DNA of 64,000 nucleotides, from positions 1 through 64,000 of the forward strand of contig JABCZR010000003.1 in assembly GCA_013289585.1 (NCBI GenBank). Direction: 5' to 3'. The DNA is from Acidobacteriota bacterium. Its GTDB lineage: Bacteria; Acidobacteriota; Terriglobia; Acidiferrales; UBA7541. Position 1 is the stretch's first letter. Every line of letters begins with the position of its first letter. Both the position numbers and the translations under genes were made by a program. The notes beneath the pieces were generated by a model that saw only the letters and a program-made list of their open reading frames with translations, did not search any database and was not told the origin of the DNA. This document shows, piece by piece, positions 34,106 through 62,696 of this stretch.

Positions 34106-34146
34106 AAGCAATCTCCACGGCAATTCTCAACGAAGCAAGGCTAACA

Positions 34147-40427: not shown

Positions 40428-40443
40428 TTAGGGATTTCCCTAG
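40428..40443. promoter_or_regulatory. Palindromic operator, site 4
   Basis: TTAGGGATTTCCCTAG, 15 of 16 matches, 188 bases before the lipoprotein/DASS unit. Confidence 0.62.
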
Positions 40444-40631: not shown

Positions 40632-41204
40632 GTGTTTTTTCGAGCAGGCTTGGTTGTGTCGCTGGAGCGAGGATCGTTGGCGCTCGCTCTGCTGCTGTTC
40701 CCGGCCGGATGCAGTCAACCGACTGTTTCCCCGGCTGAGATTGCTTCACCCAGCGAGTGGCGCGCGTTCAAAGGCACTTGGACCGCCTCAGGAACTCGGC
40801 AGACGCTCAAGCTGGAGGCAGATCACCGCGCTTCCATTTTTGATTTGAGTGGGTCGCTGCTACTAACAGGAGATCGTGGAATGGGAGTAGGGTTCCGTGC
40901 GAAGGCGATCGGCTTCTCCGACAATCTTGGCGGAATGCAGGGCCGCTGTGTTTGGACTGACGAGCGCGGGGATAAGGTTTACAGCGAATTAAAGGGTGAG
41001 TGGGTGGGAGCCGGAAATAGCATCGTCGGTACTTTTCTGGGAGGAACCGGCCGATTCGCCGGTATCACTGGGGAGTATTCCTTTCAGTGGAAGTACGTTG
41101 TTGAGTCCGAGGATGGCGCAGTCAGCGGGAGGGCCGTCAACCTTCAGGGCCGCGCCCGGTTTGGTTCAACAGCTGCCGCACCTGGCGGAGAACAATCCAA
41201 ATGA
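40632..41204 (+). CDS. Putative lipoprotein of unknown function
   Basis: 190 residues: a signal peptide ending 'LLLFPAGC-SQ', a lipobox with Cys at about 27. The mature part is beta-rich and Gly-rich ('GMGVGFRAKAIGFSDN', 'NSIVGTFLGGTGRFAGITGEYSFQWKY'), resembling allene-oxide-cyclase-like barrels, but this is only a resemblance. The start is GTG 40632 with AAGGAG about nine bases upstream. Its TGA overlaps the ATG of the DASS gene, so the two are coupled. Confidence 0.65.
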   Translation: MFFRAGLVVSLERGSLALALLLFPAGCSQPTVSPAEIASPSEWRAFKGTWTASGTRQTLKLEADHRASIFDLSGSLLLTGDRGMGVGFRAKAIGFSDNLGGMQGRCVWTDERGDKVYSELKGEWVGAGNSIVGTFLGGTGRFAGITGEYSFQWKYVVESEDGAVSGRAVNLQGRARFGSTAAAPGGEQSK

Positions 41205-42616
41205 GCACCGCCAAGACCTCCTCCCGCCGACAGCTTATGCGAGCCGTCCCGTTGGCCCTGTCGCTTGCCATTTGGTTCTGGCCGATACCAGCCGGGCTGA
41301 CGCGAGAGGCTTGGCATCTCTTCGCGATATTTGCAGCGGCTATCTTCGCTGTCATTCTGAACTCATTTCCGCTCTTGACAGCCTCAATACTGGCGGTCTC
41401 GGCTGCAGTGCTTACTCGCACGGTCGACCCCGCTAAGGCTTTCGCTGGTTTTGCCAATCAGAGCGTGCTTCTCGTTATAGTAGCTTTTCTCGTCGCGAAT
41501 GCAGTTGTGAAATCGGGGCTCGGAAGGCGCATCAGCCTTCTAGTGGTAAGTGCATTCGGGAGATCCACACTGGGCTTGGGCTATAGCATTTTTGTCACTG
41601 ACGCGATGATTGCACCCGCGTTTCCAAGCAACACAGCTCGTGGTGGCGTGCTCTACCCCATCATCCTTTCTTTGGCCCAAAGTTCCGGCTCCATGCCGGA
41701 CGATCAGAGAAGCCGACGGATGGGTGGTTATCTTATGTTTTGCGGGATGGCCAGCCTGAGTGTTTCGTCAGCCCTCTGGCTAACCGCAACTTCGGGGAAT
41801 CCAATTGCGGTTTCGTTGGCAGAACACTATGGCGTGAAGATCAACTTTGGCTCGTGGCTTCTCGCAGCATCGATTCCAGTGTTGACGATGATCGCTTTGC
41901 TTCCACTTTTCCTCTACAAATTGTTTCCGCCCGGCGTGACCGACACCCCCGACGCGCCAAAGGCCGCACGCGAAGCTCTAAGCACGATGGGATCTCTCAC
42001 GCGGGATGAATGGATCGTTGCAGTGGCTTTCGCCCTCATGGTGACCGGGTGGGTGATGGCGGGCACGCTGAACTTGAGTCTCGCTGCCGTAGCCTTTGCC
42101 GGTCTGGGCGCGCTCCTTGCCACCAATGTCCTCACCCTCGAGGACATCAACTTGCAGGGAGGTACCCTGGTCACGTTTATCTGGCTGGCAGTGCTCTTTG
42201 CTTTGAGCGGCCAATTGAACGAGCTAGGCTTCATGGGCTACGTCGGAGCACGGCTGACGTCGCTACTCGGAGGAATCACCTGGCCCATTGCCTACGTCAT
42301 ACTCGTGGTGCTCTACGTGTTGATGCACTACATGTTTGTCAGCCAGACGGCGCAGATATTGGCTCTCTTCGATGTCTTTCTGGGCGTCGGCGTGAAGACC
42401 GGTGTTCCCGCACCCTTAATGGCTTTTGCCCTGCTCTTTGCAAGCAGCTATTTCTCGACGATTACTCCGCAGGGAGGCAGCCAAAATGTCATCTTCGTCG
42501 GGAGTAGCTATCTCACTCAAGGTGAACTCTACCGGCTTGGCCTGCTGACTACAGTCTTCTGTCTGCTCGTGTTCCTGGTGGTTGGAACGCCGTGGCTCCT
42601 CTTTGTCGTTCGGTGA
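41201..42616 (+). CDS. DASS/SLC13-family anion:sodium symporter
   Basis: 471 residues with about 11-12 hydrophobic segments and the SLC13 features 'FVTDAMIAPAFPSNTARGGVLYPI' (first SNT-type motif) and 'SSYFSTITPQGGSQNVIFVGSSY' (second). Relatives import C4-dicarboxylates, citrate or sulfate, or exchange dicarboxylates (malate/oxoglutarate type). Dicarboxylate use would fit the aspartate genes further on; the substrate is inferred. It overlaps the lipoprotein gene by four bases. Confidence 0.88.
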   Translation: MSTAKTSSRRQLMRAVPLALSLAIWFWPIPAGLTREAWHLFAIFAAAIFAVILNSFPLLTASILAVSAAVLTRTVDPAKAFAGFANQSVLLVIVAFLVANAVVKSGLGRRISLLVVSAFGRSTLGLGYSIFVTDAMIAPAFPSNTARGGVLYPIILSLAQSSGSMPDDQRSRRMGGYLMFCGMASLSVSSALWLTATSGNPIAVSLAEHYGVKINFGSWLLAASIPVLTMIALLPLFLYKLFPPGVTDTPDAPKAAREALSTMGSLTRDEWIVAVAFALMVTGWVMAGTLNLSLAAVAFAGLGALLATNVLTLEDINLQGGTLVTFIWLAVLFALSGQLNELGFMGYVGARLTSLLGGITWPIAYVILVVLYVLMHYMFVSQTAQILALFDVFLGVGVKTGVPAPLMAFALLFASSYFSTITPQGGSQNVIFVGSSYLTQGELYRLGLLTTVFCLLVFLVVGTPWLLFVVR

Positions 42617-45507: not shown

Positions 45508-47004
45508 TCATTTAGGGTCAGGATCCACTTTCACGAAGCTGTACTTCGCACTGAATTGGATGCGGGGCGCATTTGCCTTTTGGCCGTTTTGCTCCATTGT
45601 CCAGCCATAAAGAAATTCAGCACCAAGGTTGAGTGATCCGGCGGGATTCCAAATCAGATTGGCGCCCGTGTAAGTGGCATGATTGTAAGTTGTTGGGGCC
45701 GCCAAATCGGTATTGTTCACCGCTGCGTAAGAGTAGATTGCGCTGGAACGCAGTCTCTTCATCCAATAATGCTGGTAGGCAGCCTCGATTCCCACCGCTG
45801 GAGTCGCCACTAAATGCGTGTTAACGCCTGTCGCTGGTTCTGCATCAATTCCTAATCCGGAGGTGTCCTGAATGTATCGCGAGATCCCATGCCCAGCAGC
45901 CACTGCAAAGATTAGATTGTCCCTATCAAAGGTCTTGAAGCCGAGTGACGCATTTATGCCCCAACCAAAAACGGAATCTGTCTTCTGGGTCGGAGTTGTC
46001 GTGACGAATGCTCCGATGGAACGAAACAGAGCGGCAATTTGAAAGTGTCCGCGTTCGAATTCCTGGCGCAAGCGAATTGCCCCATCAGGAGCCGGAGCTT
46101 CAGGCTGACTTGTGAATTGCGCCGTTTTGAAGATAACGTCTGAACTGGGCTTTTCCACGGAAAAGTAGAGGGTTGTGCTGGGAGTGAGTGCGAACCCATA
46201 GCGAAACTGCGGATTTCGGAGGCTTACCATTCCATTGGGTCCTTGAAAGTCCAGACCGTCTGGGAAAGCATCCGGATCCATAAAGTTTGTAAAAGTCTGT
46301 CCGATCAGGAGGTTTCTCGCTTGTGCATAGGCATGGCGAAGTCTCGGCGTGGTTGAATTCGTCCCGAAGAAGTCTCCTTCCACATAAAAGCGCACTTCTC
46401 CAACCTGCGAATAGGGAATCCTGAAGTCCAGGCTCAAGCGTGTCGGGCGAATGGAAATGGTCGTGTTATTTATGCTCATCGGTTGGGGAATCGGAAACGA
46501 AGAAGGGATGAACGAATCAGGGTTTCCCGCGGGTTTCAGATCGTAGATGAAATCTGTCTTAAAGTACCCACCGATTTTCAGGATGGTTTGTGTTCCCGGC
46601 AACTGAAAAAAGCCGTGGTACTTCGGGTCAAGAGGCACGTTATTGAAGCGAGCGGCTGCGACGGTGTCTTCAGAGAATTCCCGGTAGTCGGCCGTGGCTT
46701 CTCCAACATGCCGGGAGGTGGGGCCCACGCGCGGTGGTTCTGCCGTTTGAATGGTGCCATTTTGCCTAGTTGGAGGAGTCGTAGGAGCAGTTGCGGCCTG
46801 ACTCGGTGGCGCGGCAGCTTTCGTGCCCTTAAGTTCATCGATCTCCGCCTGCATCTTGCTCATTTGTGCGCTCATTGATTCCAGTAGTTTGCGCAATTCT
46901 TGAGCTTCAGACGAGGAAGTCTGAGATTGCGGCAGGGCCCTCGCGGGCAGCATCGCTACAGCCAAGAACATAATTGCAAAAAGATACGGCAGCCGAATTT
47001 TCAT
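45508..47004 (-). CDS. DcaP-family outer-membrane porin
   Basis: 498 residues: a signal peptide (about 1-23), an N-terminal coiled coil ('EAQELRKLLESMSAQMSKMQAEIDELKG', about 33-60), a Pro/Thr linker, then a porin barrel starting 'TILKIGGYFKTDFIYDLKPAG' and ending 'FSAKYSFVKVDPDPK'. DcaP-type trimeric porins take up dicarboxylic acids in other bacteria, which fits a DASS symporter nearby. GAGGAG precedes the ATG. It diverges from the decarboxylase across 528 bases containing two operators. Confidence 0.85.
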   Translation of the reverse strand: MKIRLPYLFAIMFLAVAMLPARALPQSQTSSSEAQELRKLLESMSAQMSKMQAEIDELKGTKAAAPPSQAATAPTTPPTRQNGTIQTAEPPRVGPTSRHVGEATADYREFSEDTVAAARFNNVPLDPKYHGFFQLPGTQTILKIGGYFKTDFIYDLKPAGNPDSFIPSSFPIPQPMSINNTTISIRPTRLSLDFRIPYSQVGEVRFYVEGDFFGTNSTTPRLRHAYAQARNLLIGQTFTNFMDPDAFPDGLDFQGPNGMVSLRNPQFRYGFALTPSTTLYFSVEKPSSDVIFKTAQFTSQPEAPAPDGAIRLRQEFERGHFQIAALFRSIGAFVTTTPTQKTDSVFGWGINASLGFKTFDRDNLIFAVAAGHGISRYIQDTSGLGIDAEPATGVNTHLVATPAVGIEAAYQHYWMKRLRSSAIYSYAAVNNTDLAAPTTYNHATYTGANLIWNPAGSLNLGAEFLYGWTMEQNGQKANAPRIQFSAKYSFVKVDPDPK

Positions 47005-47139: not shown

Positions 47140-47155
47140 CTAGGGAAATCCCTAA
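47140..47155. promoter_or_regulatory. Palindromic operator, site 5
   Basis: CTAGGGAAATCCCTAA, 15 of 16 to the reverse-complement form of the consensus, 135 bases before the porin ATG. Confidence 0.62.
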
Positions 47156-47251: not shown

Positions 47252-47267
47252 CTAGGGATTTCCCTAG
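47252..47267. promoter_or_regulatory. Palindromic operator, site 6 (perfect)
   Basis: CTAGGGATTTCCCTAG, 16 of 16. It lies 247 bases before the porin ATG and 265 before the decarboxylase ATG. Confidence 0.7.
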
Positions 47268-47532: not shown

Positions 47533-50349
47533 ATGAGTGCATCAGCAAATCCGGAGGCTCCTCGAGTGGACCAATTCTTAATGGCGGCGGAAGTAAGGTT
47601 CGATCGCTGGCGAGCATTGCTGCAGGCCGCTCGTACGTGGGAAAAATCACCGAGCCAACTGAGTCGGAACAAGGACGAGAATCATGCGGCTTTGATCCAG
47701 GCCTTTGCGGAGTTGCGTCAGCTGGAAGATTTCTTTGCCTATCCGGGACAATCACTGCTGAAGTCCCTGGAGGAGCGCATTGCATCGAATGACGCTGCTG
47801 GAACGGCTCGCGTGGTGCAATCGATCAGCAACGCGCTGGTGACACATTCTTATCGGTCCAGCGTCGCAGACTGGGAAAGTGCGGAACAAACCCCCGTAAG
47901 TTTTGGCGAACGGGTGCCTGGTATAGGGGAAGAGCCAGCGGCACACCGGCCCTATTTCGAAGTGCTCGTGGTGAGTCCGGCGCGTCCGACCACATGGCAG
48001 GAACTGTCGCAGGATCTCCGGAGGTTGCGCAGACCCCAAGATAAATTCGTATATGAACCGGTGTTTGTAGGCTCATTTGAAGACGCGGTATTGGCAACGA
48101 TTCTGAACGGCAGCTTTGAGGCAGTGATTATTTATGAGGGAATTCCTCTTGCCTCATCTCACAACAGCCCGGTTCTGCGCGAATTCCTGGCAAGCCATCT
48201 TGCCGCCAGCGGAATCGGAACAAATCAAGCCGACTACAGTCTGGCGCTTGCTCAGGGCTTGAAGCAGCTGCGCCCCGAGCTCGATATCTATTACCTGAGT
48301 GACCGGCAGGTGGAAAAATTGGCGGGTGATGTCACGGCGGATTGCATCCGCCGGATTTTCTACCAAGTCGAAGAGCCGTTGGAGCTGCATCTCAGCATTC
48401 TTGATGGAGTTGCGGACCGATTCGACACGCCGTATTTCGACAACCTGCAGAAATATGCGCAGCGCCCTATCGGAACATTTCACGCGCTGCCAATTGCTCG
48501 AGGCAAATCCATCTTTAAATCGAACTGGATCAGCGACATGGGCAAGTTTTACGGGATAAATCTGTTTCTTGCAGAGTCTTCAGCTACGACCGGCGGATTG
48601 GATAGTCTGCTGGAGCCCACAGGCAACATCAAAGTGGCTCAGGAAAAGGCTGCCAGAGCTTTCGGAGCGGATCATGTTTTCTTTGTGACTAACGGAACTT
48701 CGACTTCGAACAAGATCGTGGAGCAGGCGCTGCTGGCACCCGGTGACATCATGTTGGTCGACCGGAACTGTCATAAGTCGCACCACTATGGCGCGGTGCT
48801 TTCTGGGGCCTATCCTCTCTACGTCGAAGCTTATCCACTCACACAGTACTCGATGTATGGCGCGGTTCCGCTGCGCACGATCAAGAAAGCGCTGCTTGAT
48901 TTGAAGGCCGAGGGCCGACTAGATCGCGCACGGCTTCTGGTGCTCACAAACTGCACATTTGATGGCCATATCTATAACGCCGAGCGCGTCATGGAAGAGT
49001 GTCTCGCGATCAAGCCAGATCTTATTTTCCTTTGGGATGAAGCTTGGTTTGGTTTCGCCAGGTGGACCCCGTTCTACCGTCGGAGAACGGCCATGGGGGC
49101 GGCTGCGATTCTGGAGAAAAAGTTCAGAGATCCCGCGTACCGCGCGGCCTACAAAGAGCAAGAAAAAAAACTGGGAGCCGACCTTAAAGCCGGTGAGAAA
49201 ACACTGCTGGAGACCAGATTGATTCCAGACCCCGAGAAAGTGCGCCTTCGGGTCTATCAAACAAACTCGACCCACAAGTCCATGTCGTGTCTCCGGCAGG
49301 GTTCCATGGTGCTCGTCAAAGACCAGGACTATCACACGGTGGAGGAACAATTCCACGAGGCGGTTTTCACACACGCTTCCACTTCACCCAACCTTCAGAT
49401 TATTGCCACCTTGGACGTTGCGCGTCGCCAGATGGAATTAGAAGGCTACGAGCTAGTGAATCGCGCGATCCAGTTAGCGCTGGATTTCCGGCGCGAGGTG
49501 AACTCGCATCCACTCATATCAAAGTATTTTCGTGTGCTTGGCGCCGACGAACTGATTCCTGCTGAGTTTCGTAATTCTGGATTTGTCGACTATCTGACGC
49601 CCGGTGCGAATTGGGCCACAGCAGTCAAGGCCCTAAGGGATGACGAAGTCGCACTCGACGTTACACGACTCACGCTAGTGTGCGGTTCTGCTGGATTTGA
49701 CGGCACACAATTCAAGAGTTTGCTCGCCGCAGACTTTGACATCCAGTTGAACAAAACTTCGCGCAACAGCGTCTTGCTTCAAACCAACATTAACAACACA
49801 CGCAGTGACATCGCTCAACTGATTAAGGTGCTCGTCCAGATCTCGCAGGGGATCGAGAAGAAGCTTGGGGAGGGTGGCAGCGCCGCTAAGCAAGTATTTG
49901 AAGCGCGCGTGAAATCGCTAATGACCGATGTACCGGACCTTCCAAATTTCAGTTGCTTCTTCGAGCAGTTCCGCGAAGATCCTTCCAGCAAGACCAGCGA
50001 AGGCGATATGCGCTCTGCATTCTTCGCGGCCTATCGCCAGCAGCAGTGCGAACACATAAAGCTTTCCAGCCCGGAAATCGATAAGCGCTTGAAGAGTGGG
50101 CCGGAGTTGATTTCGGCAAACTTCGTGATCCCGTACCCTCCGGGATTCCCGATTATGGTTCCCGGCCAAGTCATCAATGGGGAAACGATTGAGTTCATGC
50201 GCAAGCTGGACGTCAAGGAAATCCACGGCTACAACGCCTCGCTCGGGCTAAAGCTGCTCAATCCCGCGTCTATGCAGTCGGCTAAAACACCCAGCGGGAA
50301 AGCTGCGCATGCGGCAAGGAATCTCAGGCACAAGTCAGCGGCAGGCTAG
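47533..50349 (+). CDS. Large Orn/Lys/Arg-type PLP decarboxylase
   Basis: 938 residues from ATG 47533, with GGAGGG upstream. An N-terminal region (about 1-300) includes a flavodoxin/receiver-like stretch ('EVLVVSPARP', 'FEAVIIYEGIPLAS'). The fold-type I PLP domain follows ('FFVTNGTSTSNKIVEQALLAPGDIMLVDRNCHKS'), with the Schiff-base lysine at Lys582 in NSTHKSMSCL. It ends in a C-terminal domain ('VIPYPPGFPIMVPGQVI'). Typical biosynthetic or acid-inducible members have about 710-760 residues, so this one is long. The substrate cannot be fixed from sequence. The aspT-aspD-aspT genes follow. Confidence 0.85.
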   Translation: MSASANPEAPRVDQFLMAAEVRFDRWRALLQAARTWEKSPSQLSRNKDENHAALIQAFAELRQLEDFFAYPGQSLLKSLEERIASNDAAGTARVVQSISNALVTHSYRSSVADWESAEQTPVSFGERVPGIGEEPAAHRPYFEVLVVSPARPTTWQELSQDLRRLRRPQDKFVYEPVFVGSFEDAVLATILNGSFEAVIIYEGIPLASSHNSPVLREFLASHLAASGIGTNQADYSLALAQGLKQLRPELDIYYLSDRQVEKLAGDVTADCIRRIFYQVEEPLELHLSILDGVADRFDTPYFDNLQKYAQRPIGTFHALPIARGKSIFKSNWISDMGKFYGINLFLAESSATTGGLDSLLEPTGNIKVAQEKAARAFGADHVFFVTNGTSTSNKIVEQALLAPGDIMLVDRNCHKSHHYGAVLSGAYPLYVEAYPLTQYSMYGAVPLRTIKKALLDLKAEGRLDRARLLVLTNCTFDGHIYNAERVMEECLAIKPDLIFLWDEAWFGFARWTPFYRRRTAMGAAAILEKKFRDPAYRAAYKEQEKKLGADLKAGEKTLLETRLIPDPEKVRLRVYQTNSTHKSMSCLRQGSMVLVKDQDYHTVEEQFHEAVFTHASTSPNLQIIATLDVARRQMELEGYELVNRAIQLALDFRREVNSHPLISKYFRVLGADELIPAEFRNSGFVDYLTPGANWATAVKALRDDEVALDVTRLTLVCGSAGFDGTQFKSLLAADFDIQLNKTSRNSVLLQTNINNTRSDIAQLIKVLVQISQGIEKKLGEGGSAAKQVFEARVKSLMTDVPDLPNFSCFFEQFREDPSSKTSEGDMRSAFFAAYRQQQCEHIKLSSPEIDKRLKSGPELISANFVIPYPPGFPIMVPGQVINGETIEFMRKLDVKEIHGYNASLGLKLLNPASMQSAKTPSGKAAHAARNLRHKSAAG

Positions 50350-50490
50350 CTTATCGCGTCGAGTGGGGGAATAAGCTGGCGCTTACGAAGGGATGAATGC
50401 GTAGTGGGGTTGACCCGGCGGAGGCAGCGGCAAGCATGTCGTCAGAACCCGGTGCTCAATTAACATCGGGCAATTACAAGGAGTCAAACG

Positions 50491-52188
50491 ATGGGCATAT
50501 TAGCATGGTTCGCTGCTACCCTCCGGCAGTACCCGGAGATCGCCATCTTCCTTACGCTTGCCATCGGATATTATTTCGGTAAGTTCACCTTCAAGGGAAT
50601 TGGCTTGGGGTCCGTCACGGCGACTCTGCTGGCCGGCGTCTTGATCGGGCAGATCGGAATTACCATTTCTCAGCCTCTCAAGGCGACAGTCTTCCTCCTG
50701 TTTCTCTTTGCCGTCGGCTACGGCGTGGGTCCGCAGTTCGTCCGCGGTGTCGCAAAGGACGGGGTGCCTCAAGCCCTCTTCACAGTGGTCCAGTGCGTGT
50801 TGAGCCTTGTGGTCCCTGTAGCGATCGTCAAGTTTGTCGGCTACAACCTCGGCTACGCGGCGGGGTTTTACTCCGGGTCGCAAACGCTCTCGGCGGCGAT
50901 GGGCCTCTCGACCGACGCCATCAACCGACTTGGTCTGGCCGCCGACCAGGCTAAGCAACTGATCGATTCTATGCCGGTCGCCTACGCTGTGACCTACATG
51001 TTTGGAACAATGGGATCGGCGATCGTAATTGCATTGCTTGGTCCGAAACTGCTCCGCATTAATTTAGAGGCGGCGTGCGAAGAGTACGAGGAGAAGAATG
51101 GAGGCAGTAAGGAGCTTGGTGGGCCAGGCACAGCCTGGCACCGCTGGGAAGTGCGTGCGTTTCGAGTGCAACCAGGCGGGAAGGCTGTTGGCCTCCGGGT
51201 AACCGAGGCCGAATCGCTCGTTCCCGACGCACGAGTATTTATTCTGCGCTTACGTCGCGGGGGAACGATTGAGGATGCGGCCGCAGACGCTGTGCTGCAA
51301 GAGGGCGACGTGCTAGCGGTAGTTGGTGCGCGCGAAGTGATCGTGAGTCTGACCGGGGCAGGCGCGAAGGAGGTGGACGACCCAGAACTGCTGAGCGTGC
51401 CTGTAGAAGGTGTCGACGTTTATGTGACTAACAAGGCTGTCGATGGCAAGACTTTGGCCGAACTGGCTGGGCTGCCTGGAGCGCGCGGCGTGTTCCTGCG
51501 AAAAATCACGCGGGGTGCAACCGCCACTTCGATACCGATCCTACCGAACACACAGATTCAGCGTGGCGACATCCTCACGTTGGTGGGTCGCACGCAGGAC
51601 ACTACCGGCGCAGCCAAGCTAGTGGGAGTCGCGGACAGGCCAACGGATGTTGCCGACGTCGCGTTCATGGGCGCCGGAATTGTGATTGGTGCGCTGATCG
51701 GCGCGCTAGTCTGGAAAGTAGGTGGTGTGCCGCTGACGCTCTCAACCGCCGGCGGCGCGCTCGTCTCGGGGCTCATTTGCGGGTGGTTGCGCTCGGTGCA
51801 TCCCAAGTTCGGCCGCATTCCTACGCCAACCCTCTGGTTCATGAACTCCGTCGGTCTTAACATCTTCATCGCCATAGTTGGCATCTCGGCCGGTCCGGGC
51901 TTCGTAAATGGCTTGCGGACACAAGGCATTGGGCTGTTCCTATGGGGAGCCGTGGCAACGACGGTGCCTCTCGTCTTGGGGATGTTCATCGGCAAGTACC
52001 TCTTCCGCTTCCACGATGCGCTTCTACTCGGCATTGTTTCCGGAGCGCGCACGACGACGGCTTCGCTCGGCTTGGTCTGCGATATAGGCAAGAGCCAGGT
52101 GCCCGCTTTAGGTTATAGCGTGACCTACGCCGTCGGTAACACTCTGCTCACGATCTGGGGCATGGTCGTCATCATGCTTCTGTCGTGA
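50491..52188 (+). CDS. aspT: Aspartate:alanine antiporter (AspT family), copy 1
   Basis: 565 residues with the AAEx architecture: N-terminal membrane half ('[27 protein letters not shown]', '[10 protein letters not shown]'), two TrkA-C-type cytosolic domains (about 205-385) and a C-terminal membrane half ('[19 protein letters not shown]', '[17 protein letters not shown]'). AspT exchanges external aspartate for internal alanine and, with AspD, generates proton-motive force. AAGGAG lies before the ATG. It is 141 bases after the decarboxylase and 22 bases before aspD. Confidence 0.9.
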
Positions 52189-52210
52189 CATTCTTTGAAA
52201 GGTGAAAATC

Positions 52211-53842
52211 ATGGACCTCGTAAAGCTCCGTAAATTCGAAACGTTGGGCCCGTTTGAGATTAAAGATGAGCTGATCAAGCTCGCCAAGAAAACCTCGCGT
52301 ACGACGCAGTCGGCATTCCTCAATGCGGGGCGTGGCAACCCCAACTGGATCGCCACCACTCCGCGAGAAGGATTCTTCCTTCTCGGTCAGTTCGCGGTCA
52401 CCGAAAGCAAGCGGGTGATGGAGCATCCTGCAGGTGTCGGTGGAATGCCGCAGCCGCAAGGCATCGCGAGCCGTTTCGAAGTATGGCTCGCAAAACATTC
52501 CGACATGCCCGGTGCGTCCTTTCTCTCGGCGATGGTGCCGTTTGCAATAAAGACGTTCGGGTTCGAACCGGACGCCTTCGTCCACGAGCTCGTGGACTCG
52601 ATCATCGGCGACAATTATCCGGTCCCCGATCGCATGCTGGTTCACAACGAGCGCATCGTGCACGAGTACTTGGCGTGGGCGATGTGCGGCAATCCGCGGC
52701 CGGCGGGCAAGTTCGACCTCTATGCGGTCGAGGGCGGCACGGCTGCGATGTGCTACATCTTCAAATCAATGAAAGCCAACCGCCTGCTGCACCCAGGAGA
52801 CACAATCGCGCTGGGCACGCCGATTTTTACGCCGTACCTCGAACTGCCGCACCTCGAAGACTACGGGCTGCATTTCATTACCATCCAAGCCCCGCAAGAG
52901 AATCGCTTTCAGTTCACGGACGCAGAGCTCAAGAAGCTGGAAGATCCCAAGGTCAAGGCGTTCTTCCTCGTCAATCCCGGCAATCCGACAGGCGTGGCAA
53001 TCAGCAGGGAAGTGATCGGCAAGATCGCAAATCTAGTGAAGACGAAGCGCCCCGACCTCATGATTCTGACCGACGACGTTTACGGAACGTTTGTCCACGA
53101 TTTCCGATCTCTGCTTGGCGAGCTACCGTACAACACCATTGGTGTCTACTCCTATTCCAAATATGTCGGCTGCACCGGGTGGCGCCTCGGTGTCATCGCG
53201 GTCCATGAAGACAACATTTTCGACAAGATGATCGCGAAGCTCTCGGATGTCGATCTGAAAGCGCTCGACAAACGGTATGGCACACTGGTCCTCGAGCCGC
53301 GCAAAATCAAGTTCATCGACCGCATTGTGGCCGACAGCCGGGATGTGGCCCTCAATCACACAGCCGGCCTCGCACTGCCCCAGCAGGTCATGATGAGCCT
53401 GTTCTCCCTTGCTGAAATGATGGATGGAGCCAAGCTGTATCAGAAGGCCTGCATGGAGATCGTGCACCGGCGCGCCAAGGCCATGATTGAAGGCCTCGGC
53501 ATCGAAGTCACTCCGAACACGCTGTACAACGCCTACTACGGTTTGATCGACTTCGAATTTTTTGCACGCAAGAACATCGGCGAAGACGCCGTCGAATACC
53601 TTAAGAAAAATGTCCACCCGCTCGACCTCGCCTTCTGTCTCGCCGAGGATCACGGGATCGTGCTGCTGAATGGCGGAGGCTTCGAGGCGCCAGACTGGTC
53701 GCTGCGCGTGTCCCTGGCCAATCTGCCCGACGAAGCGTATGAGGAAATCGGACGCGGCGTTCGAGCGATCGCGCGCGGCTACCGCGATGCTTTCGAGGCT
53801 TCGAAGGGCACGAAAAAATCCGGACAAGCGGCAGCGCGATAG
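52211..53842 (+). CDS. aspD: Aspartate 4-decarboxylase / transaminase
   Basis: 543 residues from ATG 52211 with AAGGTGA upstream (GTG 52202 is an alternative). It has the AspD-specific N-terminal region and the aminotransferase fold: 'AVEGGTAAMCYIF', 'FFLVNPGNPTGVAIS', 'DDVYGTF' and the PLP lysine Lys317 in SYSKYVGCTGWRLG. It converts aspartate to alanine and CO2, consuming a cytosolic proton. Its position between two AspT copies supports this role strongly. Confidence 0.93.
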   Translation: MDLVKLRKFETLGPFEIKDELIKLAKKTSRTTQSAFLNAGRGNPNWIATTPREGFFLLGQFAVTESKRVMEHPAGVGGMPQPQGIASRFEVWLAKHSDMPGASFLSAMVPFAIKTFGFEPDAFVHELVDSIIGDNYPVPDRMLVHNERIVHEYLAWAMCGNPRPAGKFDLYAVEGGTAAMCYIFKSMKANRLLHPGDTIALGTPIFTPYLELPHLEDYGLHFITIQAPQENRFQFTDAELKKLEDPKVKAFFLVNPGNPTGVAISREVIGKIANLVKTKRPDLMILTDDVYGTFVHDFRSLLGELPYNTIGVYSYSKYVGCTGWRLGVIAVHEDNIFDKMIAKLSDVDLKALDKRYGTLVLEPRKIKFIDRIVADSRDVALNHTAGLALPQQVMMSLFSLAEMMDGAKLYQKACMEIVHRRAKAMIEGLGIEVTPNTLYNAYYGLIDFEFFARKNIGEDAVEYLKKNVHPLDLAFCLAEDHGIVLLNGGGFEAPDWSLRVSLANLPDEAYEEIGRGVRAIARGYRDAFEASKGTKKSGQAAAR

Positions 53843-54015
53843 TGCACCGCGGCTTTCCGGGATCACGAGAAGAAAAACGCCAGAATTCTGCTGAACGATT
53901 TCAGCGCGGCCAGTAGGAAATAGAATGGATACCTCGTTGGGCGGCCTCCACAACTCTCACCCGAAAATCAGGTGGTGGGTCCTCAAGAGGGAGGCCGCCG
54001 TAAAAGGAATGGCCT

Positions 54016-55707
54016 ATGGAGTGGCTGGCGAAACTCTTTACAAAGTATCCCGAAATGGCAGTCTACCTGGCAGTAGGCCTAGGGTACTTGATCGGTCGGT
54101 TGAAGTTTCGTGGTGTCGGACTTGGTGTGGTGACAGGGTCCTTGTTGGGAGGGATTTTTATTGGGAATTTCTTTCACGTGCCCGTATCCGACCAAGCTAA
54201 ATCGATCGTATTCCTTCTGTTCCTTTTCGGAATCGGTTACTCGGTGGGACCTAGTTTTTTTCAGAATCTTAAAGGGGAAGGCTGGCGCTGGGCCGTGCTC
54301 GGCGTATTTGTTCCTGTAATAGGCCTTTTGACGGCTTACGCTGTCGCTCATTTTCTGAAACTTGACCCAGGCTATTCCGCCGGTTTGCTATCCGGAGCCT
54401 TGACAGAGTCCCCTGCAATCGGCACTGCAAGCGAAGCAATACGTTCCTTATCATTGCCCGACGAACTGAAACAGCAATGGATCGCACACATCGCTGTCGC
54501 GGATGCAATCTGCTACGTCTTCGGTACCTTGGGCGTGATCTGGTGCTGTAGCAGCCTTGGACCGAAACTCCTTGGCTTTGACCTTCGTGCCGAGTCCAAG
54601 AAAGTGGAAGCCAACCTAGGAATCCAACGCTCGAAGCTCGGCGTTTATTCCGCATGGCAACCTATCGGTTTTCGCGTCTATACAATTCCTCAAGACGGCC
54701 TCGTCGTTGGCAAAACAGTCGCGGAAGCCGAGCAGTCTGTGCCCGGTGTCCGCCTCTTTGTAGAACGAATTCGACGTAATGGGAAGATCTTCTCACCCCT
54801 AGGCACCAGCGTCCTGGAGGCAAATGATACGGTCGCTGTGCTCGGGCGTACGGAAATCATGATCAAAGCACTTGGTCCGCTGGCCAGAGAGGTCGCTGAC
54901 CCTGAACTGCTGGAGATTCCAGTAGCATCCTACGATCTATACACCACCAGTAAGACGATTGCTGGCAAGACTCTCCAGGAGATTGTAGATGATGTCGAGG
55001 AAGCTCGTGGCGTTTTGCTGAAAGGCATCTCGCGCGGTGGCCATGAGATTCCAATCGGAACAAATACAGTGATCGAACGCGGCGACTTACTACGTGTAAG
55101 TGGATCTGAATCTGCAGTCGAGGAACTGGCCCCTGTAGTTGGCCGCGTGATTCACCCAACGGATGAGACCGATTTTGCTGTGCTCGGAATAGCCATATCC
55201 ATCGGCGTATTGGTGGGGGCCGTGCTCACAATACCCATAGGGCATCTGAGAATAGCGTTGGGCACTAGCGTTGGAACTCTTCTCGCCGGCGTGACCGTTG
55301 GATGGATGCGGTCTGTGCGTCCGTGGTTCGGAATAATTCCAGATGCCGCGATTTTGTTCATGCGGTCGCTTGGACTGGCAGCGTTTGTGGCAATGATCGG
55401 CCTAAAAGCTGGGCCGATCTTTGTGCAGGCAGTGAGAGAATTTGGCTACATCCTCTTCCTTGGAGGAATTGCGGTAACGCTTACACCACTCATTGCAGGT
55501 CTTTTCTTCGGCCGCTACGTTCTTGGACTCAACCCGGCACTCTTGCTTGGAGGCATCGCTGGAGCACAGACGATGATCGCGGGCGTCGCCGCGGTGCAGG
55601 AGAAATCAGACAGCCAAGTTGCCACATTAGGCTATTCGTACACGGTGGCATTTGGACATATCTTTTTGACTATCTGGGGAACCATTATCGTTTCCCTAAT
55701 GACTTAG
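54016..55707 (+). CDS. Aspartate:alanine antiporter (AspT family), copy 2
   Basis: 563 residues with the same two membrane halves and central TrkA-C pair as copy 1 ('YPEMAVYLAVGLGYLIGRLKFRGVGLG', 'GGIAGAQTMIAGVAAV'). The sequence has clearly diverged, and the conserved C-terminal motif differs (AGAQTMI versus SGARTTT). It starts 173 bases after aspD with AAGGA upstream. It may exchange a different amino-acid pair, for example for the large decarboxylase upstream, or be a paralogue of AspT. Confidence 0.88.
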   Translation: MEWLAKLFTKYPEMAVYLAVGLGYLIGRLKFRGVGLGVVTGSLLGGIFIGNFFHVPVSDQAKSIVFLLFLFGIGYSVGPSFFQNLKGEGWRWAVLGVFVPVIGLLTAYAVAHFLKLDPGYSAGLLSGALTESPAIGTASEAIRSLSLPDELKQQWIAHIAVADAICYVFGTLGVIWCCSSLGPKLLGFDLRAESKKVEANLGIQRSKLGVYSAWQPIGFRVYTIPQDGLVVGKTVAEAEQSVPGVRLFVERIRRNGKIFSPLGTSVLEANDTVAVLGRTEIMIKALGPLAREVADPELLEIPVASYDLYTTSKTIAGKTLQEIVDDVEEARGVLLKGISRGGHEIPIGTNTVIERGDLLRVSGSESAVEELAPVVGRVIHPTDETDFAVLGIAISIGVLVGAVLTIPIGHLRIALGTSVGTLLAGVTVGWMRSVRPWFGIIPDAAILFMRSLGLAAFVAMIGLKAGPIFVQAVREFGYILFLGGIAVTLTPLIAGLFFGRYVLGLNPALLLGGIAGAQTMIAGVAAVQEKSDSQVATLGYSYTVAFGHIFLTIWGTIIVSLMT

Positions 55708-55754: not shown

Positions 55755-58406
55755 TCACGCGCGGACGCTCCGTTCCTTCACATCGCCCGAAGACGTAGGA
55801 CTCAGACCAGTGTCCGCCACGCTTTCTGCGACTGATCCATCAACGCTGCGAACATGGATATCTCGCTGAGGGAACGGGATTTCGATACTGGCCTCTTTCA
55901 AGGCTGTGGCGACGGCGACAGTGACATCGCTCTGTAGCTGAAACCAGGTGTCCTGCTGACCACACCAAAAGCGCAGCTCAAACTTCAGTGCGCTTTCGCC
56001 AAATCCCAGGAAGAAAGCCATGGGCGGGCGCTCGCGCAAGACTCCCGGATGTGATCCCGCCACTCCCTCGAGCAGCTTGATCACTCGGGCGGGATCGGTC
56101 CCATAAGCCACTCCGACGGGCACGTCCACGCGCCGCCATTGTGACGACAGGGTCCAATTGATGACCTGGTTCGAAATCAGGTTGCTATTCGGTACGATCA
56201 CCTCCGCACCCTGGAAGGTCAGGATTGTGCTGGATCGCGCCCCGATCCTCCGAACGATGCCCACCAATCCCCCGACGTCCACGGTATCGCCGACGTGGAT
56301 GGGACGCTCGAAGAGCAAGATCAGTCCAGAAACAAAATTGTTCACGATATTTTGTAGGCCGAAGCCGAGACCAACGCCTAGCGCGCCTGTGAGCACCGTA
56401 AACTTGTTTAGCTCGACACCGGCTGCCGCTAGAGCGGCTCCAGCAACCACCAGCATAAGGACGTAATAGGCGATCGTTGAGATGGCGTAGGGCACGCCGC
56501 GGTCAAGAGACAATTTTGGAAGCACAACCTTTTTTAATAGAAACGTGAACGCATTCGCGAGCGCGTAACCAACCAGCAAGACCAGCGCAACGCCGAGCGC
56601 GCCTCCAAGGGTGAAATGCACCCGATCAAAGCCGATAGGGCGTTGCGACAGACTGGATAGGGCAGTCATCACGCTTTCATAGATGGTCAGTAGCCGCAAC
56701 ATGGCTTTCAACCACAACAACGAAGCCACAAGGCCCAAGAGGCGGCCGCCCCAGCGTTCTACGGCATCAGTCCGCATTTCGAGTAGCGCGCGCGCCCAGC
56801 TCGTGTGCAGGACGGTGTTGAGAATTAGGGTCAATACGCGCACGCCGCAGATAAGAGCAGTAGCAACAAAGGTTCCAACCAAGGCGCTCAGACCTAGAAC
56901 CTGAGCCAGCGAAACATATCCGACCACATTCGCCACGAGAGATACGGCCATCAGCACAAGACCCGCGCGGATCCCGATCAAGTAAATTCGCACCTTTCGA
57001 TTCTGACTCATTAACGGGCCTATTCTCGATGGGCGCGCCAGCCAGCCAATACTGAGCAAGGCGGCGAGAACAAGTAGGGCGTAAAGCTCACGCCTGAAAA
57101 ATGATGGGAGTTGAATGAGCAGGTACACGCCGCCAAGTGCGTAGAACGCGGCCAGGACATACAGAAAAATCCGAAGCCTGGGCTCGGTTAATAGCACCAA
57201 TAGTCGCAACACGGGAAAGAGATAAAGCAGGTAAAAGGCGAAGGCGATGCCGATGGGTGCCGAAGCGATGTATTGTCCCGTTCCGATCAGCGCCACCAAT
57301 AGCGCTACTGAAAACGGCCGGGCCAATAACTCCAAGAGCTCGTTTGGAACTTCGGGTCGCGCCGCCTGCTCAACGTAGAGCCTAAACTTGAAAACGCCGA
57401 GAAGCGCCAGAAGGTACAACATCGCGAAAATAAACATGGCGGGCATATGTGTACTCAGGAACTCCTTAGCGCTTGTAAATGACCTGTCAAAAGAGCTGTG
57501 GAAGGAAGGTCCGAAGTTTTGCTCGACTGCTTCCGAATCGCGGGCTTCCCAGAGAGGACGGCCATCCAGCTCTAGCAGACGACCCCGTTCGAGCTCGCGC
57601 GCTTGACGCACCCGCAGCAATATGTCCGAGATTTGCTGGTCTTGCTGAGAAACCTGATTTTGTATAGTGAGCAGCACATTTAGCTGTTCCTGTGCTTCCG
57701 ATTTTGCAGCACGAATCTTGTCCAATTGCTGCTTAATGCGGTCGACAATGGCTCCTATTCCTGGGGATTGATGAATCTGGTTCCAGGTAGCCACCCACTC
57801 CGCCTGTTGAGCCTCTAGCGTTTGAATCTGCTCTTCCAGTTTCCCTGCACGCAGCGTCAGGTGTCTACGTTCTGCGGCATATTCGAGGCTCCGGGAGTAC
57901 CAGTATCGCTGTTCGTCTTCCAGGTCCAGCGATGTGGGGTCGCCAGCCAGGAGGTCCCTGGTTTGTAGCGTTCGCCGACGAAGCTCAGCGGCTCGTTCTT
58001 CCGCTTTTCGCTGGGACTCCAGCAACTCAGACTTAGGTATCAGTTGACTGCTGATTTCTCGCAGCAGCTGGTCTAGCTCCACCGCGCGGTCGGCAATCTG
58101 AGGCAGAGGAATAGTTTGTTCTACGGATTGAGCTGCAGGAACTGCCGGAACTTCGTTCACCTGCGACTGCTTAGCGCTGTTCGAAAATGCAGACTGTGAG
58201 GGCGGCGTCTGGGACTGAATCCCGCGAATGAAGGGAGAGAAGGAAGTGAAGAAAAATGCGGTGGCAATAAGGCAGGGACGAAGCCAGTCAAGGCTTCCCC
58301 GGATGACTGCTCCTACGGTGATGCGATGAGATGAACTTTGTTGGGTCAAAGGTCTATAACCTCTTCTTCCTAGATTTAGACCGGCTGGGGGGATACTGAG
58401 AGACAT
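55755..58406 (-). CDS. MscS-family mechanosensitive channel (large, KefA/MscK-like)
   Basis: 883 residues: an N-terminal signal/anchor, a periplasmic coiled-coil region (about 90-300), about ten hydrophobic segments and a C-terminal MscS core. The core has a TM3-type Ala/Gly-rich helix ('GALGVGLGFGLQNIVNNFVSGLILLFERPIHVGDTVDVGG'). Such channels release solutes during osmotic downshock. It is convergent with aspT copy 2, separated by 47 bases. No operator is seen directly in front of it. Confidence 0.88.
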   Translation of the reverse strand: MSLSIPPAGLNLGRRGYRPLTQQSSSHRITVGAVIRGSLDWLRPCLIATAFFFTSFSPFIRGIQSQTPPSQSAFSNSAKQSQVNEVPAVPAAQSVEQTIPLPQIADRAVELDQLLREISSQLIPKSELLESQRKAEERAAELRRRTLQTRDLLAGDPTSLDLEDEQRYWYSRSLEYAAERRHLTLRAGKLEEQIQTLEAQQAEWVATWNQIHQSPGIGAIVDRIKQQLDKIRAAKSEAQEQLNVLLTIQNQVSQQDQQISDILLRVRQARELERGRLLELDGRPLWEARDSEAVEQNFGPSFHSSFDRSFTSAKEFLSTHMPAMFIFAMLYLLALLGVFKFRLYVEQAARPEVPNELLELLARPFSVALLVALIGTGQYIASAPIGIAFAFYLLYLFPVLRLLVLLTEPRLRIFLYVLAAFYALGGVYLLIQLPSFFRRELYALLVLAALLSIGWLARPSRIGPLMSQNRKVRIYLIGIRAGLVLMAVSLVANVVGYVSLAQVLGLSALVGTFVATALICGVRVLTLILNTVLHTSWARALLEMRTDAVERWGGRLLGLVASLLWLKAMLRLLTIYESVMTALSSLSQRPIGFDRVHFTLGGALGVALVLLVGYALANAFTFLLKKVVLPKLSLDRGVPYAISTIAYYVLMLVVAGAALAAAGVELNKFTVLTGALGVGLGFGLQNIVNNFVSGLILLFERPIHVGDTVDVGGLVGIVRRIGARSSTILTFQGAEVIVPNSNLISNQVINWTLSSQWRRVDVPVGVAYGTDPARVIKLLEGVAGSHPGVLRERPPMAFFLGFGESALKFELRFWCGQQDTWFQLQSDVTVAVATALKEASIEIPFPQRDIHVRSVDGSVAESVADTGLSPTSSGDVKERSVRA

Positions 58407-59296: not shown

Positions 59297-59312
59297 CTAG
59301 GAAAACCCCTAG
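59297..59312. promoter_or_regulatory. Palindromic operator, site 7
   Basis: CTAGGAAAACCCCTAG, 14 of 16 to the consensus in reverse-complement form, 137 bases before the start of the secreted protein gene. Confidence 0.55.
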
Positions 59313-59653: not shown

Positions 59654-59669
59654 CTAGGACTTTCCCTAG
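59654..59669. promoter_or_regulatory. Palindromic operator, site 8
   Basis: CTAGGACTTTCCCTAG, 14 of 16. It sits about 100 bases before the decayed glucosidase fragment and 573 bases before the 60243 gene. Confidence 0.55.
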
Positions 59670-60929: not shown

Positions 60930-62630
60930 TCACGAGGACAATTCACCGTATTTCGCAACCGCCAGCTCGAGAGTAAACTGCATCTTCTCACGTCCGAGGG
61001 CGATGCCTAGCGGCGATCGCTGGACCATTTGCAGTACTCCGGGGTTGAGCCCCACTAACCAAGTGGCCACTCCAAGATCACGTTGTCGTTTCTCGCCCTC
61101 GTTCAGGGCTTTCAATGCCGAGTATTCGAGATCGAACACAGCACTGAGATCGAGCACAACTACCTTGGGTTGCGCTTCATTCACCAACAGTCTTATCTTC
61201 TGTCCGATAAGCTCGGCATTGGCAAAAAAAACGCGTCCCTCAAGTCGCAGCAACAACAGACCTGGAAAAGTTTCGTCCTCTGGATGCTCCCCAGAACGTG
61301 GCCGAAACACATTTGTCCCTGGCTTGCGCCCTAGAACGTACACCGGTGGATCGGCAACCTGAGATGCCAGCGCCACCAGCGACACCAGGATGGCGACAAT
61401 GATCCCCTTCAAAGTCCCCAACAGAACCACCCCGGCTAAGGCGGTCAAAGCCCAGGTAAACTCAGTTCGGCGGATATTTAGGATCGCACGGAACTCTGTC
61501 GGTTGAATCAATCCGATCGAGTAGACGATAACGATGGCTGCGAGAGTCGCTTGAGGCATGAGCGCTAGAAGGGGCGCGAGCAATAGAATTGTGGCCAATG
61601 CAACGATAGCTGTAACTATCTCTGCGAGCTGCGTGCGCGCACCCGCGCGGCGGTTCACCGCGGTCTGGGAGGTGCCTCCACCGGCAGGCATTGTTCCCGC
61701 GAACGCGCCTCCCGCATTTGCGATCCCCGTCGCAAGCAACTCCCGATTTGGTCGGAGAGGTGGTTCCTCACTCTTGGCGAACGCTCGACCGGCGGCAATC
61801 GTCTCGGTAAAACTCATCAGCGCTATGCCTAAGGCCCCAGGCCAGAGCTCTCCCACGAGAGAGAATTCCGGGAAAGTGATTGAGGGTAGACCCTGAGGAA
61901 TCCGTCCGACTAACTCCACTCCGTGTGCCTGCAACCCCAGGAAGCGTGCACCGATGATTCCCGTAGCCACGGCGATCAGCGGAGCCGGCGTTCGCGGAAG
62001 CAATCGTTCGATCCCAACCAACAAGACGATCATTGCTATCCCGACGGCTAATGTCGTCAGCTTGGCCTCTGGAGTTCCACGCACGATAGCCAACACGTTA
62101 TGGAAAAAAGAGGCCCTGGGAATATGAATGCCGAGGATCTTTGGAATCTGATCTAGCACGATGACAGTACCAATACCCGCCTTAAAGCCGACCAATACTG
62201 GTTCGGAAATGAAATTAGCGATAAAGCCCAACCGCAACAACGAAGCAAGAACGAGGATGCCTCCAACCAATAGTGTCAACATTGCTGAAGCCTTAAGGAG
62301 GGATGACGGATCTCCACCAGGCACGACTTGGCCGAGTTCTGTTGCGGTGAGAACTGCGATGGTGGTGGTGGTGCTTACACTCAGTGGGCGAGAGGTTCCC
62401 AGCACAGCGTAAATCGCCAAGGGGACTAAGGCAGTGTATAGCCCCACCTGTACCGGAAGTCCTGCAATCGTTGCATATGCCATTGCCTTGGGAATGACCA
62501 CGGCGGCCGTGGTCAGGCCGGCGATCAGATCCGGCCGCAACCACTCCTTCTGGTAACCGAATAACCAGTCTGCAATCGGTAGGTTGCTGTGGCTGGTATG
62601 CCCTGTCGACAAGTCTTTCCCCAAACGCAT
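60930..62630 (-). CDS. SulP-family anion transporter with STAS domain
   Basis: About 566 residues from ATG 62630 (TTG 62696 would add 22). There are about 12-14 hydrophobic segments with SulP patterns ('DLIAGLTTAAVVIPKAMAYATIAGLP', 'NRELLATGIANAGGAFAGTMPAGGGTSQTAVN') and a C-terminal STAS domain ('VVVLDLSAVFDLEYSALKAL'). The family imports sulfate, bicarbonate or other anions, or dicarboxylates. It is one of the units next to an operator (site 9, 141 bases upstream of ATG 62630). Confidence 0.9.
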   Translation of the reverse strand: MRLGKDLSTGHTSHSNLPIADWLFGYQKEWLRPDLIAGLTTAAVVIPKAMAYATIAGLPVQVGLYTALVPLAIYAVLGTSRPLSVSTTTTIAVLTATELGQVVPGGDPSSLLKASAMLTLLVGGILVLASLLRLGFIANFISEPVLVGFKAGIGTVIVLDQIPKILGIHIPRASFFHNVLAIVRGTPEAKLTTLAVGIAMIVLLVGIERLLPRTPAPLIAVATGIIGARFLGLQAHGVELVGRIPQGLPSITFPEFSLVGELWPGALGIALMSFTETIAAGRAFAKSEEPPLRPNRELLATGIANAGGAFAGTMPAGGGTSQTAVNRRAGARTQLAEIVTAIVALATILLLAPLLALMPQATLAAIVIVYSIGLIQPTEFRAILNIRRTEFTWALTALAGVVLLGTLKGIIVAILVSLVALASQVADPPVYVLGRKPGTNVFRPRSGEHPEDETFPGLLLLRLEGRVFFANAELIGQKIRLLVNEAQPKVVVLDLSAVFDLEYSALKALNEGEKRQRDLGVATWLVGLNPGVLQMVQRSPLGIALGREKMQFTLELAVAKYGELSS

Positions 62631-62696
62631 CTGCTGGGTTCGTCCATCAGCGCAGTTCACCGATATTCGATCAACGCCAAATCCGACGGGTGACAA

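What the first reader, a model, noticed from the sequence alone, without database searches (positions are those of the whole stretch)
47533..55707. Decarboxylase followed by aspT-aspD-aspT: a candidate acid-resistance or energy module
AspD with AspT is a known proton-motive cycle (aspartate in, alanine and CO2 out). Here AspD is flanked by two diverged AspT paralogues and preceded by a 938-residue Orn/Lys/Arg-type decarboxylase. The only perfect operator lies just upstream. The second antiporter may serve the large decarboxylase, which would couple two amino-acid cycles under one regulator. The DcaP porin and DASS transporter could supply substrate.
Basis: partly seen in the sequence, partly recalled or inferred. 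Interest (0 to 1): 0.65.

Follow-up and report, generated by a model that had tools for sequence, protein, structure and literature searches.

The report
Second decarboxylase–antiporter pair beside AspD/AspT
A soil bacterium carries, next to a textbook aspartate-to-alanine energy cycle, a second amino-acid decarboxylase of unknown substrate whose close relatives mostly sit beside the same kind of membrane exchanger, which points to an undescribed acid-resistance or energy-saving pair.

Summary
Confirmed: a 938-aa decarboxylase (DEC), aspT1, aspD and aspT2 lie in that order after the only perfect 16-nt copy of a palindromic operator. DEC is a long Orn/Lys/Arg-fold enzyme like M. tuberculosis Rv2531c (activity unknown). 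Among its 80 best-matching loci in a set of 84,980 species genomes, an AspT-family gene lies within 2.5 kb in 69, and 46 of those stretches show no AspD. Of 45 genomes without AspD near DEC, searched whole, 36 have none above cut-off. AspT2 falls in an AspT clade with DEC in the stretch for 26 of 27 members (sampling is DEC-biased). Catalytic residues are kept, but the glutamate proposed to hold a basic side chain is Asn in 86 of 86 close relatives, so I infer a non-basic, perhaps acidic substrate (glutamate or aspartate). All nine genome copies of the operator core (≤1 mismatch) lie in one 36-kb island with a NarL-type regulator. Substrate, transport and pH response are untested. A new variant of decarboxylase–antiporter cycles.

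The parts
47533..50349 (+). DEC: 938-aa Orn/Lys/Arg-fold PLP decarboxylase of the long Rv2531c type; PLP lysine K582
50491..52188 (+). AspT1: aspartate-alanine antiporter family, clade I (both AspD-linked and DEC-linked relatives)
52202..53842 (+). AspD: aspartate 4-decarboxylase
54016..55707 (+). AspT2: aspartate-alanine antiporter family, clade III (relatives mostly near DEC)
47140..47155 (.). operator copy, 1 mismatch in the 16-mer, in the DcaP/DEC divergent region
47252..47267 (.). perfect operator CTAGGGATTTCCCTAG upstream of DEC
45508..47004 (-). DcaP-type outer-membrane porin, divergent from DEC; relatives lie in other acidobacterial DEC regions
32243..34123 (-). histidine kinase (HisKA_3) with ABC_sub_bind-like part; one end of the island
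34375..35034 (-). NarL/LuxR-type response regulator, candidate for the operator
35269..35284 (.). operator copy (2 mismatches) between the response regulator and a Ysc84 gene
37938..37953 (.). operator copy (1 mismatch)
40287..40302 (.). operator copy (2 mismatches) upstream of the 40632/DASS unit
40428..40443 (.). operator copy (1 mismatch) upstream of the 40632/DASS unit
41201..42616 (+). DASS-family (Na_sulph_symp) transporter in the island
55755..58406 (-). MscK-like mechanosensitive channel in the island
59297..59312 (.). operator copy (2 mismatches)
59654..59669 (.). operator copy (2 mismatches)
60930..62696 (-). SulP-family transporter with STAS domain; SulP relatives lie in 24 of the 80 DEC loci
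62772..62787 (.). operator copy (1 mismatch) upstream of SulP

Best explanation
The four genes are probably one stress-induced transcription unit that encodes two decarboxylase:antiporter couples. AspT1/AspD would run the known cycle (Asp(1-) in, decarboxylation to Ala with use of a proton, Ala out). DEC with AspT2 (possibly also AspT1) would run a parallel cycle of the same logic: an anionic amino acid enters, DEC removes CO2 and takes up a cytoplasmic proton, and the neutral product leaves, so the cell is de-acidified and proton-motive force is made. SHOWN: gene content and order, intact frames, the operator array confined to one island, the association of DEC's close relatives with AspT independent of AspD, and loss of the proposed basic-side-chain-binding residue. 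INFERRED: that AspT2 is DEC's partner here, that the substrate is acidic (glutamate to GABA, or aspartate to beta-alanine), that the local NarL-type system reads the operators, and that the trigger is acid or a related envelope/energy stress.
For: AspT within 2.5 kb of DEC in 69 of 80 loci, same-strand directly downstream in 65 of 80. Of the 11 without, four are cut contigs; of the other seven genomes, six carry two AspT genes outside the stretch read. AspD is absent above cut-off in 15 of 19 and 21 of 26 DEC genomes picked for lacking AspD near DEC. In the window's own family DEC occurs in 3 of 61 genomes, and AspT matches over cut-off occur in the same 3 of 61. AspT clade III, which holds window AspT2: 26 of 27 with DEC in the stretch; clade VI: 25 of 25 abut DEC with no AspD in the stretch. 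Starting from AspT2 instead of DEC: 11 of the 12 plasmid records at 45% identity or more also hold a DEC of about 65% identity, though nine of the 11 are Ensifer adhaerens. DEC active site: PLP lysine and partners kept; CadA E526/SpeF E532 is N740 in 86 of 86 close relatives, and R323, K325, R744 are 86 of 86. DcaP lies divergently from DEC with two operators between. All nine operator cores at <=1 mismatch lie in 36 kb of a 4.73-Mb genome.
Against: No substrate was tested, and the structure paper of the nearest solved enzyme is reported not to have clarified its activity (passages of PMC12910592). In the window AspT2 abuts AspD, not DEC. Tandem AspT with AspD occurs without DEC in the stretch read (L111, L115). 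AspT1-type antiporters abut both AspD and DEC, so AspT2 need not be DEC's sole partner. DEC relatives of 42-48% identity without AspT in the stretch keep the same pocket residues in 5 of 5 and mostly sit in a CN-hydrolase-DEC-ATP-grasp cassette, so those residues do not mark an AspT cycle as such; in a class-wide sample 11 of 385 genomes had a DEC-type match, and of the nine looked at three have AspT beside it and six the cassette. AspT clade counts are DEC-biased, since most loci were gathered by DEC. No expression data.
Confidence: 0.52

Rival explanations
1. DEC decarboxylates a basic amino acid (Lys, Arg or Orn) for acid defence or polyamine/amine metabolism; AspT1 and AspT2 both serve AspD, and DEC is merely a neighbour in a stress island.
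For: OKR_DC_1 fold. A more distant DEC relative lies about 7 kb from an arginase gene in Roseateles. CN-hydrolase next to DEC in relatives without AspT recalls amine pathways. aspT-aspT-aspD without DEC in the stretch read exists.
Against: AspT beside DEC with no AspD above cut-off in the genome in many lineages. The proposed distal-amine residue (E526/E532) is Asn, and new Arg/Lys residues are invariant. No amino-acid permease family appears among the nine window proteins scanned around DEC.
Confidence: 0.27
2. DEC and AspD act on the same imported aspartate: DEC makes beta-alanine, AspD makes alanine, and both antiporters are Asp:neutral exchangers of different affinity or pH optimum.
For: DEC and AspD lie with a single AspT in Rhizobium sp. 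T136. AspT clade I holds both AspD-only and DEC-only neighbourhoods. panD is missing from the window's genome.
Against: The panD loss carries no weight: 58 of 61 family genomes have no panD match, with or without DEC. Sixteen clade I antiporters near DEC and not near AspD form their own subclade, which suggests specialisation.
Confidence: 0.2
3. The island serves general dicarboxylate/amino-acid use or envelope stress, and the decarboxylases supply CO2/bicarbonate or alanine rather than pH or energy homeostasis.
For: SulP, DASS, MscK-like, DUF3300, DUF2950 and PPK2 genes in the same island.
Against: The characterised member of the antiporter family does electrogenic precursor:product exchange (PMC9508256, abstract start and passages); an HdeA/HdeB-family gene occurs near DEC in Rhizobium sp. 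T136, though such genes were seen in only 2 of the loci searched.
Confidence: 0.2

Closest known systems
AspD/AspT proton-motive cycle (asp operon, Tetragenococcus halophilus)
   Same: AspD and both AspT pass the curated family cut-offs; adjacent genes; solved chains named aspartate/alanine antiporter match both copies
   Different: two AspT of different clades and a third gene, DEC, whose close relatives pair with AspT also where AspD is absent
Long OKR-fold decarboxylase Rv2531c (PDB 9n0n/9n0o)
   Same: homology over nearly the whole chain, E in the 1e-230 range; N740 and Q879 positions shared
   Different: K325 and R744 are Ala and Ile in Rv2531c (read from the alignment); the window enzyme stands beside AspT genes
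CadA/CadB, AdiA/AdiC, SpeF/PotE acid-resistance pairs
   Same: PLP fold and catalytic residues; gene pair of decarboxylase plus antiporter
   Different: proposed basic-substrate residue replaced, PGHxGG replaced by PxARGKS, antiporter of the AspT family instead of APC (APC membership of CadB/AdiC/PotE is recalled)
GadB/GadC glutamate-dependent acid resistance
   Same: would be the same logic if DEC turns glutamate into GABA
   Different: GAD-family decarboxylase not in the window genome above cut-off; enzyme and antiporter are of unrelated families (recalled)

Membership tests
AspD/AspT cycle | aspartate 4-decarboxylase (TIGR03801) | tested here: met
   780.7 bits against cut-off 435.1
AspD/AspT cycle | aspartate:alanine antiporter (TIGR03802) next to it | tested here: met
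   648.5 and 554.0 bits against 546.95; AspT2 passes by 7 bits only
AspD/AspT cycle | electrogenic Asp/Ala exchange | not testable with these tools
   needs transport assay
Orn/Lys/Arg decarboxylases (CadA/AdiA/SpeF) | OKR_DC_1 domain and PLP lysine with partners | tested here: met
   K582, H581, S579, D502, W505, H414 in 86 of 86 close relatives
Orn/Lys/Arg decarboxylases (CadA/AdiA/SpeF) | Glu proposed to bind the distal amine (CadA E526, SpeF E532; AdiA has Thr) | tested here: not met
   Asn in the window enzyme, in 86 of 86 close and 5 of 5 more distant relatives; role from docking and a cited proposal only (PMC5607190 passages)
Orn/Lys/Arg decarboxylases (CadA/AdiA/SpeF) | NCBIfam cut-off of a named enzyme | tested here: not met
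   best 197.6 bits against 968
Rv2531c-type long decarboxylases | homology over the whole ~940-aa chain | tested here: met
   residues 21-916 aligned, 768.9 bits
GadB/GadC system | GAD-family decarboxylase | tested here: not met
   window genome: only a partial match of 36.7 bits against 380.4
Acid-resistance system | induction and protection at low pH | not testable with these tools
   no expression or phenotype data

The most novel reading that the evidence does not exclude
DEC is an acidic-amino-acid decarboxylase of the Orn/Lys/Arg fold, most simply glutamate to GABA. With its own AspT-type antiporter it forms a GadB/GadC-like acid-resistance and energy system built from unrelated parts, spread across Alpha-, Beta- and Gammaproteobacteria and Acidobacteriota and sometimes stacked with AspD/AspT, here under one island-specific regulator.
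Probability: 0.35. Interest if true: 0.75.

Novelty: new variant of a known kind. Interest (0 to 1): 0.57.

Why it matters
Rv2531c, the solved relative, has no assigned substrate according to the review passages seen. The recurrent pairing of DEC's close relatives with an AspT-family antiporter gives a concrete hypothesis (charge, direction and product class) and simple tests in harmless hosts. It also warns that genes named 'aspartate-alanine antiporter' because they pass TIGR03802 may serve another decarboxylase: 5 of 9 AspT proteins from DEC loci that I tested pass it, and 36 of 45 DEC genomes checked hold no AspD above cut-off. The operator array shows one island with its own likely regulon, which makes the inducing signal testable.

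Tried and rejected
PanD test: DEC genomes often lack aspartate 1-decarboxylase (13 of 39 have it over cut-off), but 58 of 61 family genomes have no match regardless of DEC, so this says nothing about beta-alanine. GabT/SSADH neighbours as a pointer to GABA: gabT over its cut-off stands in G277, in an overlapping operon with an SSADH-like gene that is itself below its family cut-off, and in Roseobacter ponti; a partial gabT match lies at the edge of L156. The other relatives of this group show CN-hydrolase-DEC-ATP-grasp, mostly with C45/AAT, and no gabT in the stretch read, so I keep it as weak support only. Carbonic anhydrase and HdeA/B: 2 loci each among those searched, too few to use. The residue at AspT position 76 (R76 of the characterised AspT, seen as a reference title) varies within clades and does not separate AspD-linked from DEC-linked copies. 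Operator in relatives: not found with up to 2 mismatches in the stretches read of G051 and G007 or in L024 and L098; in the other loci held at that time 2 matches against 6 in shuffles; no other repeated perfect palindrome in G051 or G007. Rfam and tRNA searches of the window: none. Promoter and terminator scans: fewer than in shuffles. Structure prediction was not run: the tool returns no coordinates for the pocket, and a homologue is already solved. Literature: no paper describing a DEC-AspT pair appeared in the listings of searches (no paper found; open-access library only). The DUF3300/DUF2950 search led to PMC4653623 (passages), which says that gene neighbourhood gave no hint of their function. 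Passages of PMC6297170, PMC5472864 and PMC6691051 were seen and not used. The cryo-EM paper on Rv2531c is not held.

Full report
CHECK OF THE OBSERVATION. Pfam and NCBIfam agree with the names; AspT2 passes the antiporter cut-off by only 7 bits. The two antiporters share 40% identity. The genome (4.73 Mb in 32 contigs) has only these two AspT matches, and a search with DEC finds no second match in it at E ≤ 0.001.

THE DECARBOXYLASE. DEC matches the OKR_DC_1 domain, but over nearly its whole length its only solved relatives are 9n0n/9n0o, named 'Probable amino acid decarboxylase' (E about 1e-230). A review lists 9N0O as M. tuberculosis Rv2531c and says that the structural study did not clarify its activity (PMC12910592, passages). 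I aligned DEC relatives with CadA, LdcC, AdiA and SpeF of E. coli. One search used 86 close relatives (the 80 loci and six more, one of them the split G007 gene; 11 of the 80 have no AspT of over 420 aa within 2.5 kb) and five more distant ones. The PLP lysine (K582) and H581, S579, D502, W505 and H414 are kept in 86 of 86 and 5 of 5. CadA E526 (SpeF E532), proposed from docking and an earlier suggestion to bind the substrate amine (PMC5607190, passages), is Asn 740 in all 91. AdiA has Thr there, so the position is not invariant even among basic-substrate enzymes. PGHxGG is replaced by PxARGKS, and R323, K325 and R744 are invariant (91 of 91). In Rv2531c, K325 and R744 correspond to Ala and Ile (read from the alignment). 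I infer that the pocket no longer suits a basic side chain and may suit a carboxylate; whether these residues line the pocket was not tested.

THE COMPANY IT KEEPS. An AspT-family gene of more than 420 aa lies within 2.5 kb of DEC in 69 of 80, and on the same strand directly downstream (under 400 nt) in 65 of 80. The 11 without comprise four cut contigs (L024, L069, L073, L090; L090 holds a partial AspT) and seven full loci; six of those seven genomes carry two AspT genes outside the stretch and one (Ignatzschineria, L099) has none at E ≤ 1e-40. In 46 of the 69 no AspD lies in the fetched stretch; stretches vary in length. I then searched whole genomes for AspD, choosing those without AspD in the stretch: 15 of 19 (L061 could not be searched) and 21 of 26 have none above cut-off. 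One of these 45, L099, also lacks AspT. In Acetobacter fabarum and Gluconobacter kondonii a separate AspT-AspD pair of another AspT clade lies elsewhere in the genome. In the window's own family DEC occurs in 3 of 61 genomes and AspT over cut-off in the same 3, own genome included; one further genome (G052) has a partial AspT match with a stop. In a sample of the phylum DEC matches at E ≤ 1e-100 in 2 of 297, the window's genome and G277, the latter of the more distant type without AspT in the stretch read. DEC and AspT are thus rare and co-occur there.

THE MORE DISTANT RELATIVES. Five plasmid relatives of 42-48% identity (L016, L019-L022) have no AspT in the stretch read. Starting from one of them (L016), 11 of 385 genomes of the class of G078 match at E ≤ 1e-100. 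I fetched eight and already held G078 (L103); two (G612, G481) were not read. Six of these nine show a CN-hydrolase-DEC-ATP-grasp cassette without AspT, three (G078, G601, G778) have AspT beside DEC. Coupling to AspT is therefore a trait of the window's branch, not of the whole family, and the cassette branch keeps the same pocket residues in the five proteins checked.

WHICH ANTIPORTER GOES WITH WHICH ENZYME. A FastTree of 139 AspT-family proteins, with E. coli YbjL as outgroup (counts), puts AspT1 in clade I (51 members, support 0.998: 26 abut DEC only, 18 abut both, 6 abut AspD only, 1 neither; 'abut' means under 300 nt) and AspT2 in clade III (27 members, support 0.999: 16 abut DEC, 3 abut AspD, 8 neither; 26 have DEC in the stretch). 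Clade VI (25) abuts DEC in all cases with no AspD in the stretch. Clade V is mostly AspD-linked (7 of 10 abut AspD). Two lactobacillal AspD-linked AspT fall outside these clades with weak support. Loci were mostly gathered by DEC, so these counts are biased toward DEC. A check that starts from AspT2: of the 12 plasmid records at 45% identity or more to AspT2, 11 hold a DEC of about 65% identity, but nine of the 11 are Ensifer adhaerens; one of those 11 records, NZ_CP083374, appears among the 60 best AspD records listed. In Ensifer canadensis the order is aspT1-DEC-aspT2-porin-aspD; in Rhodobacter sp. CZR27 DEC-aspT-aspT without AspD in the stretch. A Solibacteraceae genome has a DcaP-like stretch of 287 aa, DEC and an AspT of clade III, and no AspD match at E ≤ 1e-60. 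The order DEC-aspT-aspD-aspT recurs on one strand in 8 of the 80 loci (L032, L033, L037, L040, L043, L085, L086, L092), besides the window and G051; only in L085 and L092 is the last antiporter of AspT2's clade. Results against the pairing: AspT2 abuts AspD in the window; single AspT1-type genes stand in loci that have both enzymes; aspT-aspT-aspD without DEC in the stretch exists in Burkholderia savannae and Caballeronia sp. NK8.

REGULATION AND ISLAND. TAGGGANNTCCCTA with up to one mismatch occurs at nine places in the genome, all between 35.3 and 71.3 kb of one contig; the reversed control pattern gives five, whose places are not told. Two copies lie between the divergent DcaP and DEC genes. 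The island starts with a histidine kinase and a NarL/LuxR-type regulator, has somewhat lower G+C (0.52-0.56 against 0.56-0.60 before 32 kb), and continues beyond the window with a second kinase of the same build, DUF3300, DUF2950, PPK2 and DUF2254. SulP, DUF3300, DUF2950, PPK2 and AI-2E relatives lie in 24, 26, 20, 24 and 15 of the 80 DEC loci, many of them Bradyrhizobium, so these are not independent counts. The operator itself was not found in the relatives' stretches. That the NarL-type regulator reads the operator is inference.

MECHANISM AND CONFIDENCE. I consider a functional DEC-AspT couple in this branch likely (about 0.8), AspT2 as DEC's partner in this window fairly likely (0.6), an acidic substrate plausible (0.45), with glutamate somewhat ahead of aspartate. 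The slight lean to glutamate rests on gabT and an SSADH-like gene in an overlapping operon with a DEC relative in G277, gabT near DEC in Roseobacter ponti, and an SSADH-like gene near DEC in Phyllobacterium; both SSADH-like proteins are below their family cut-offs, and other relatives of the distant group lack gabT in the stretch read. The acid or energy role follows from the known AspT/AspD cycle (PMC9508256, abstract start and passages) and is otherwise untested here.

NOVELTY. Decarboxylase-antiporter cycles are known; a long Orn/Lys/Arg-fold enzyme coupled to an AspT-family antiporter was not found in the listings of searches of an open-access library, which does not prove it unpublished. 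I therefore call it a new variant of a known kind.

Noticed in passing
window 35269-62787 and C3:65042, 65691, 71283 (L132): All nine genome copies (<=1 mismatch) of a 14-nt palindrome lie in one 36-kb island that holds two ABC_sub_bind/HisKA_3 kinases and a NarL-type regulator; not found with <=2 mismatches in the stretches read of G051 and G007.
   Followed up: partly
L016, L020, L156, L157, L159, L160, L161: DEC relatives without AspT sit in a conserved cassette CN_hydrolase-DEC-ATP-grasp (PRK06524-like)-C45/AAT acyltransferase, function unknown; L022, L116 and L158 (cut contig) hold parts of it.
   Followed up: partly
L111 and L115: Tandem aspT-aspT-aspD without DEC in the stretch read (Burkholderia savannae, Caballeronia sp. 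NK8 plasmids).
   Followed up: no
L015 9320-9336 region: In G007 DEC is split over two frames near residues 174-191, a frame break or assembly error.
   Followed up: no
L099: Ignatzschineria ureiclastica carries DEC with no AspT (E <= 1e-40) and no AspD (E <= 1e-60) in the genome.
   Followed up: no
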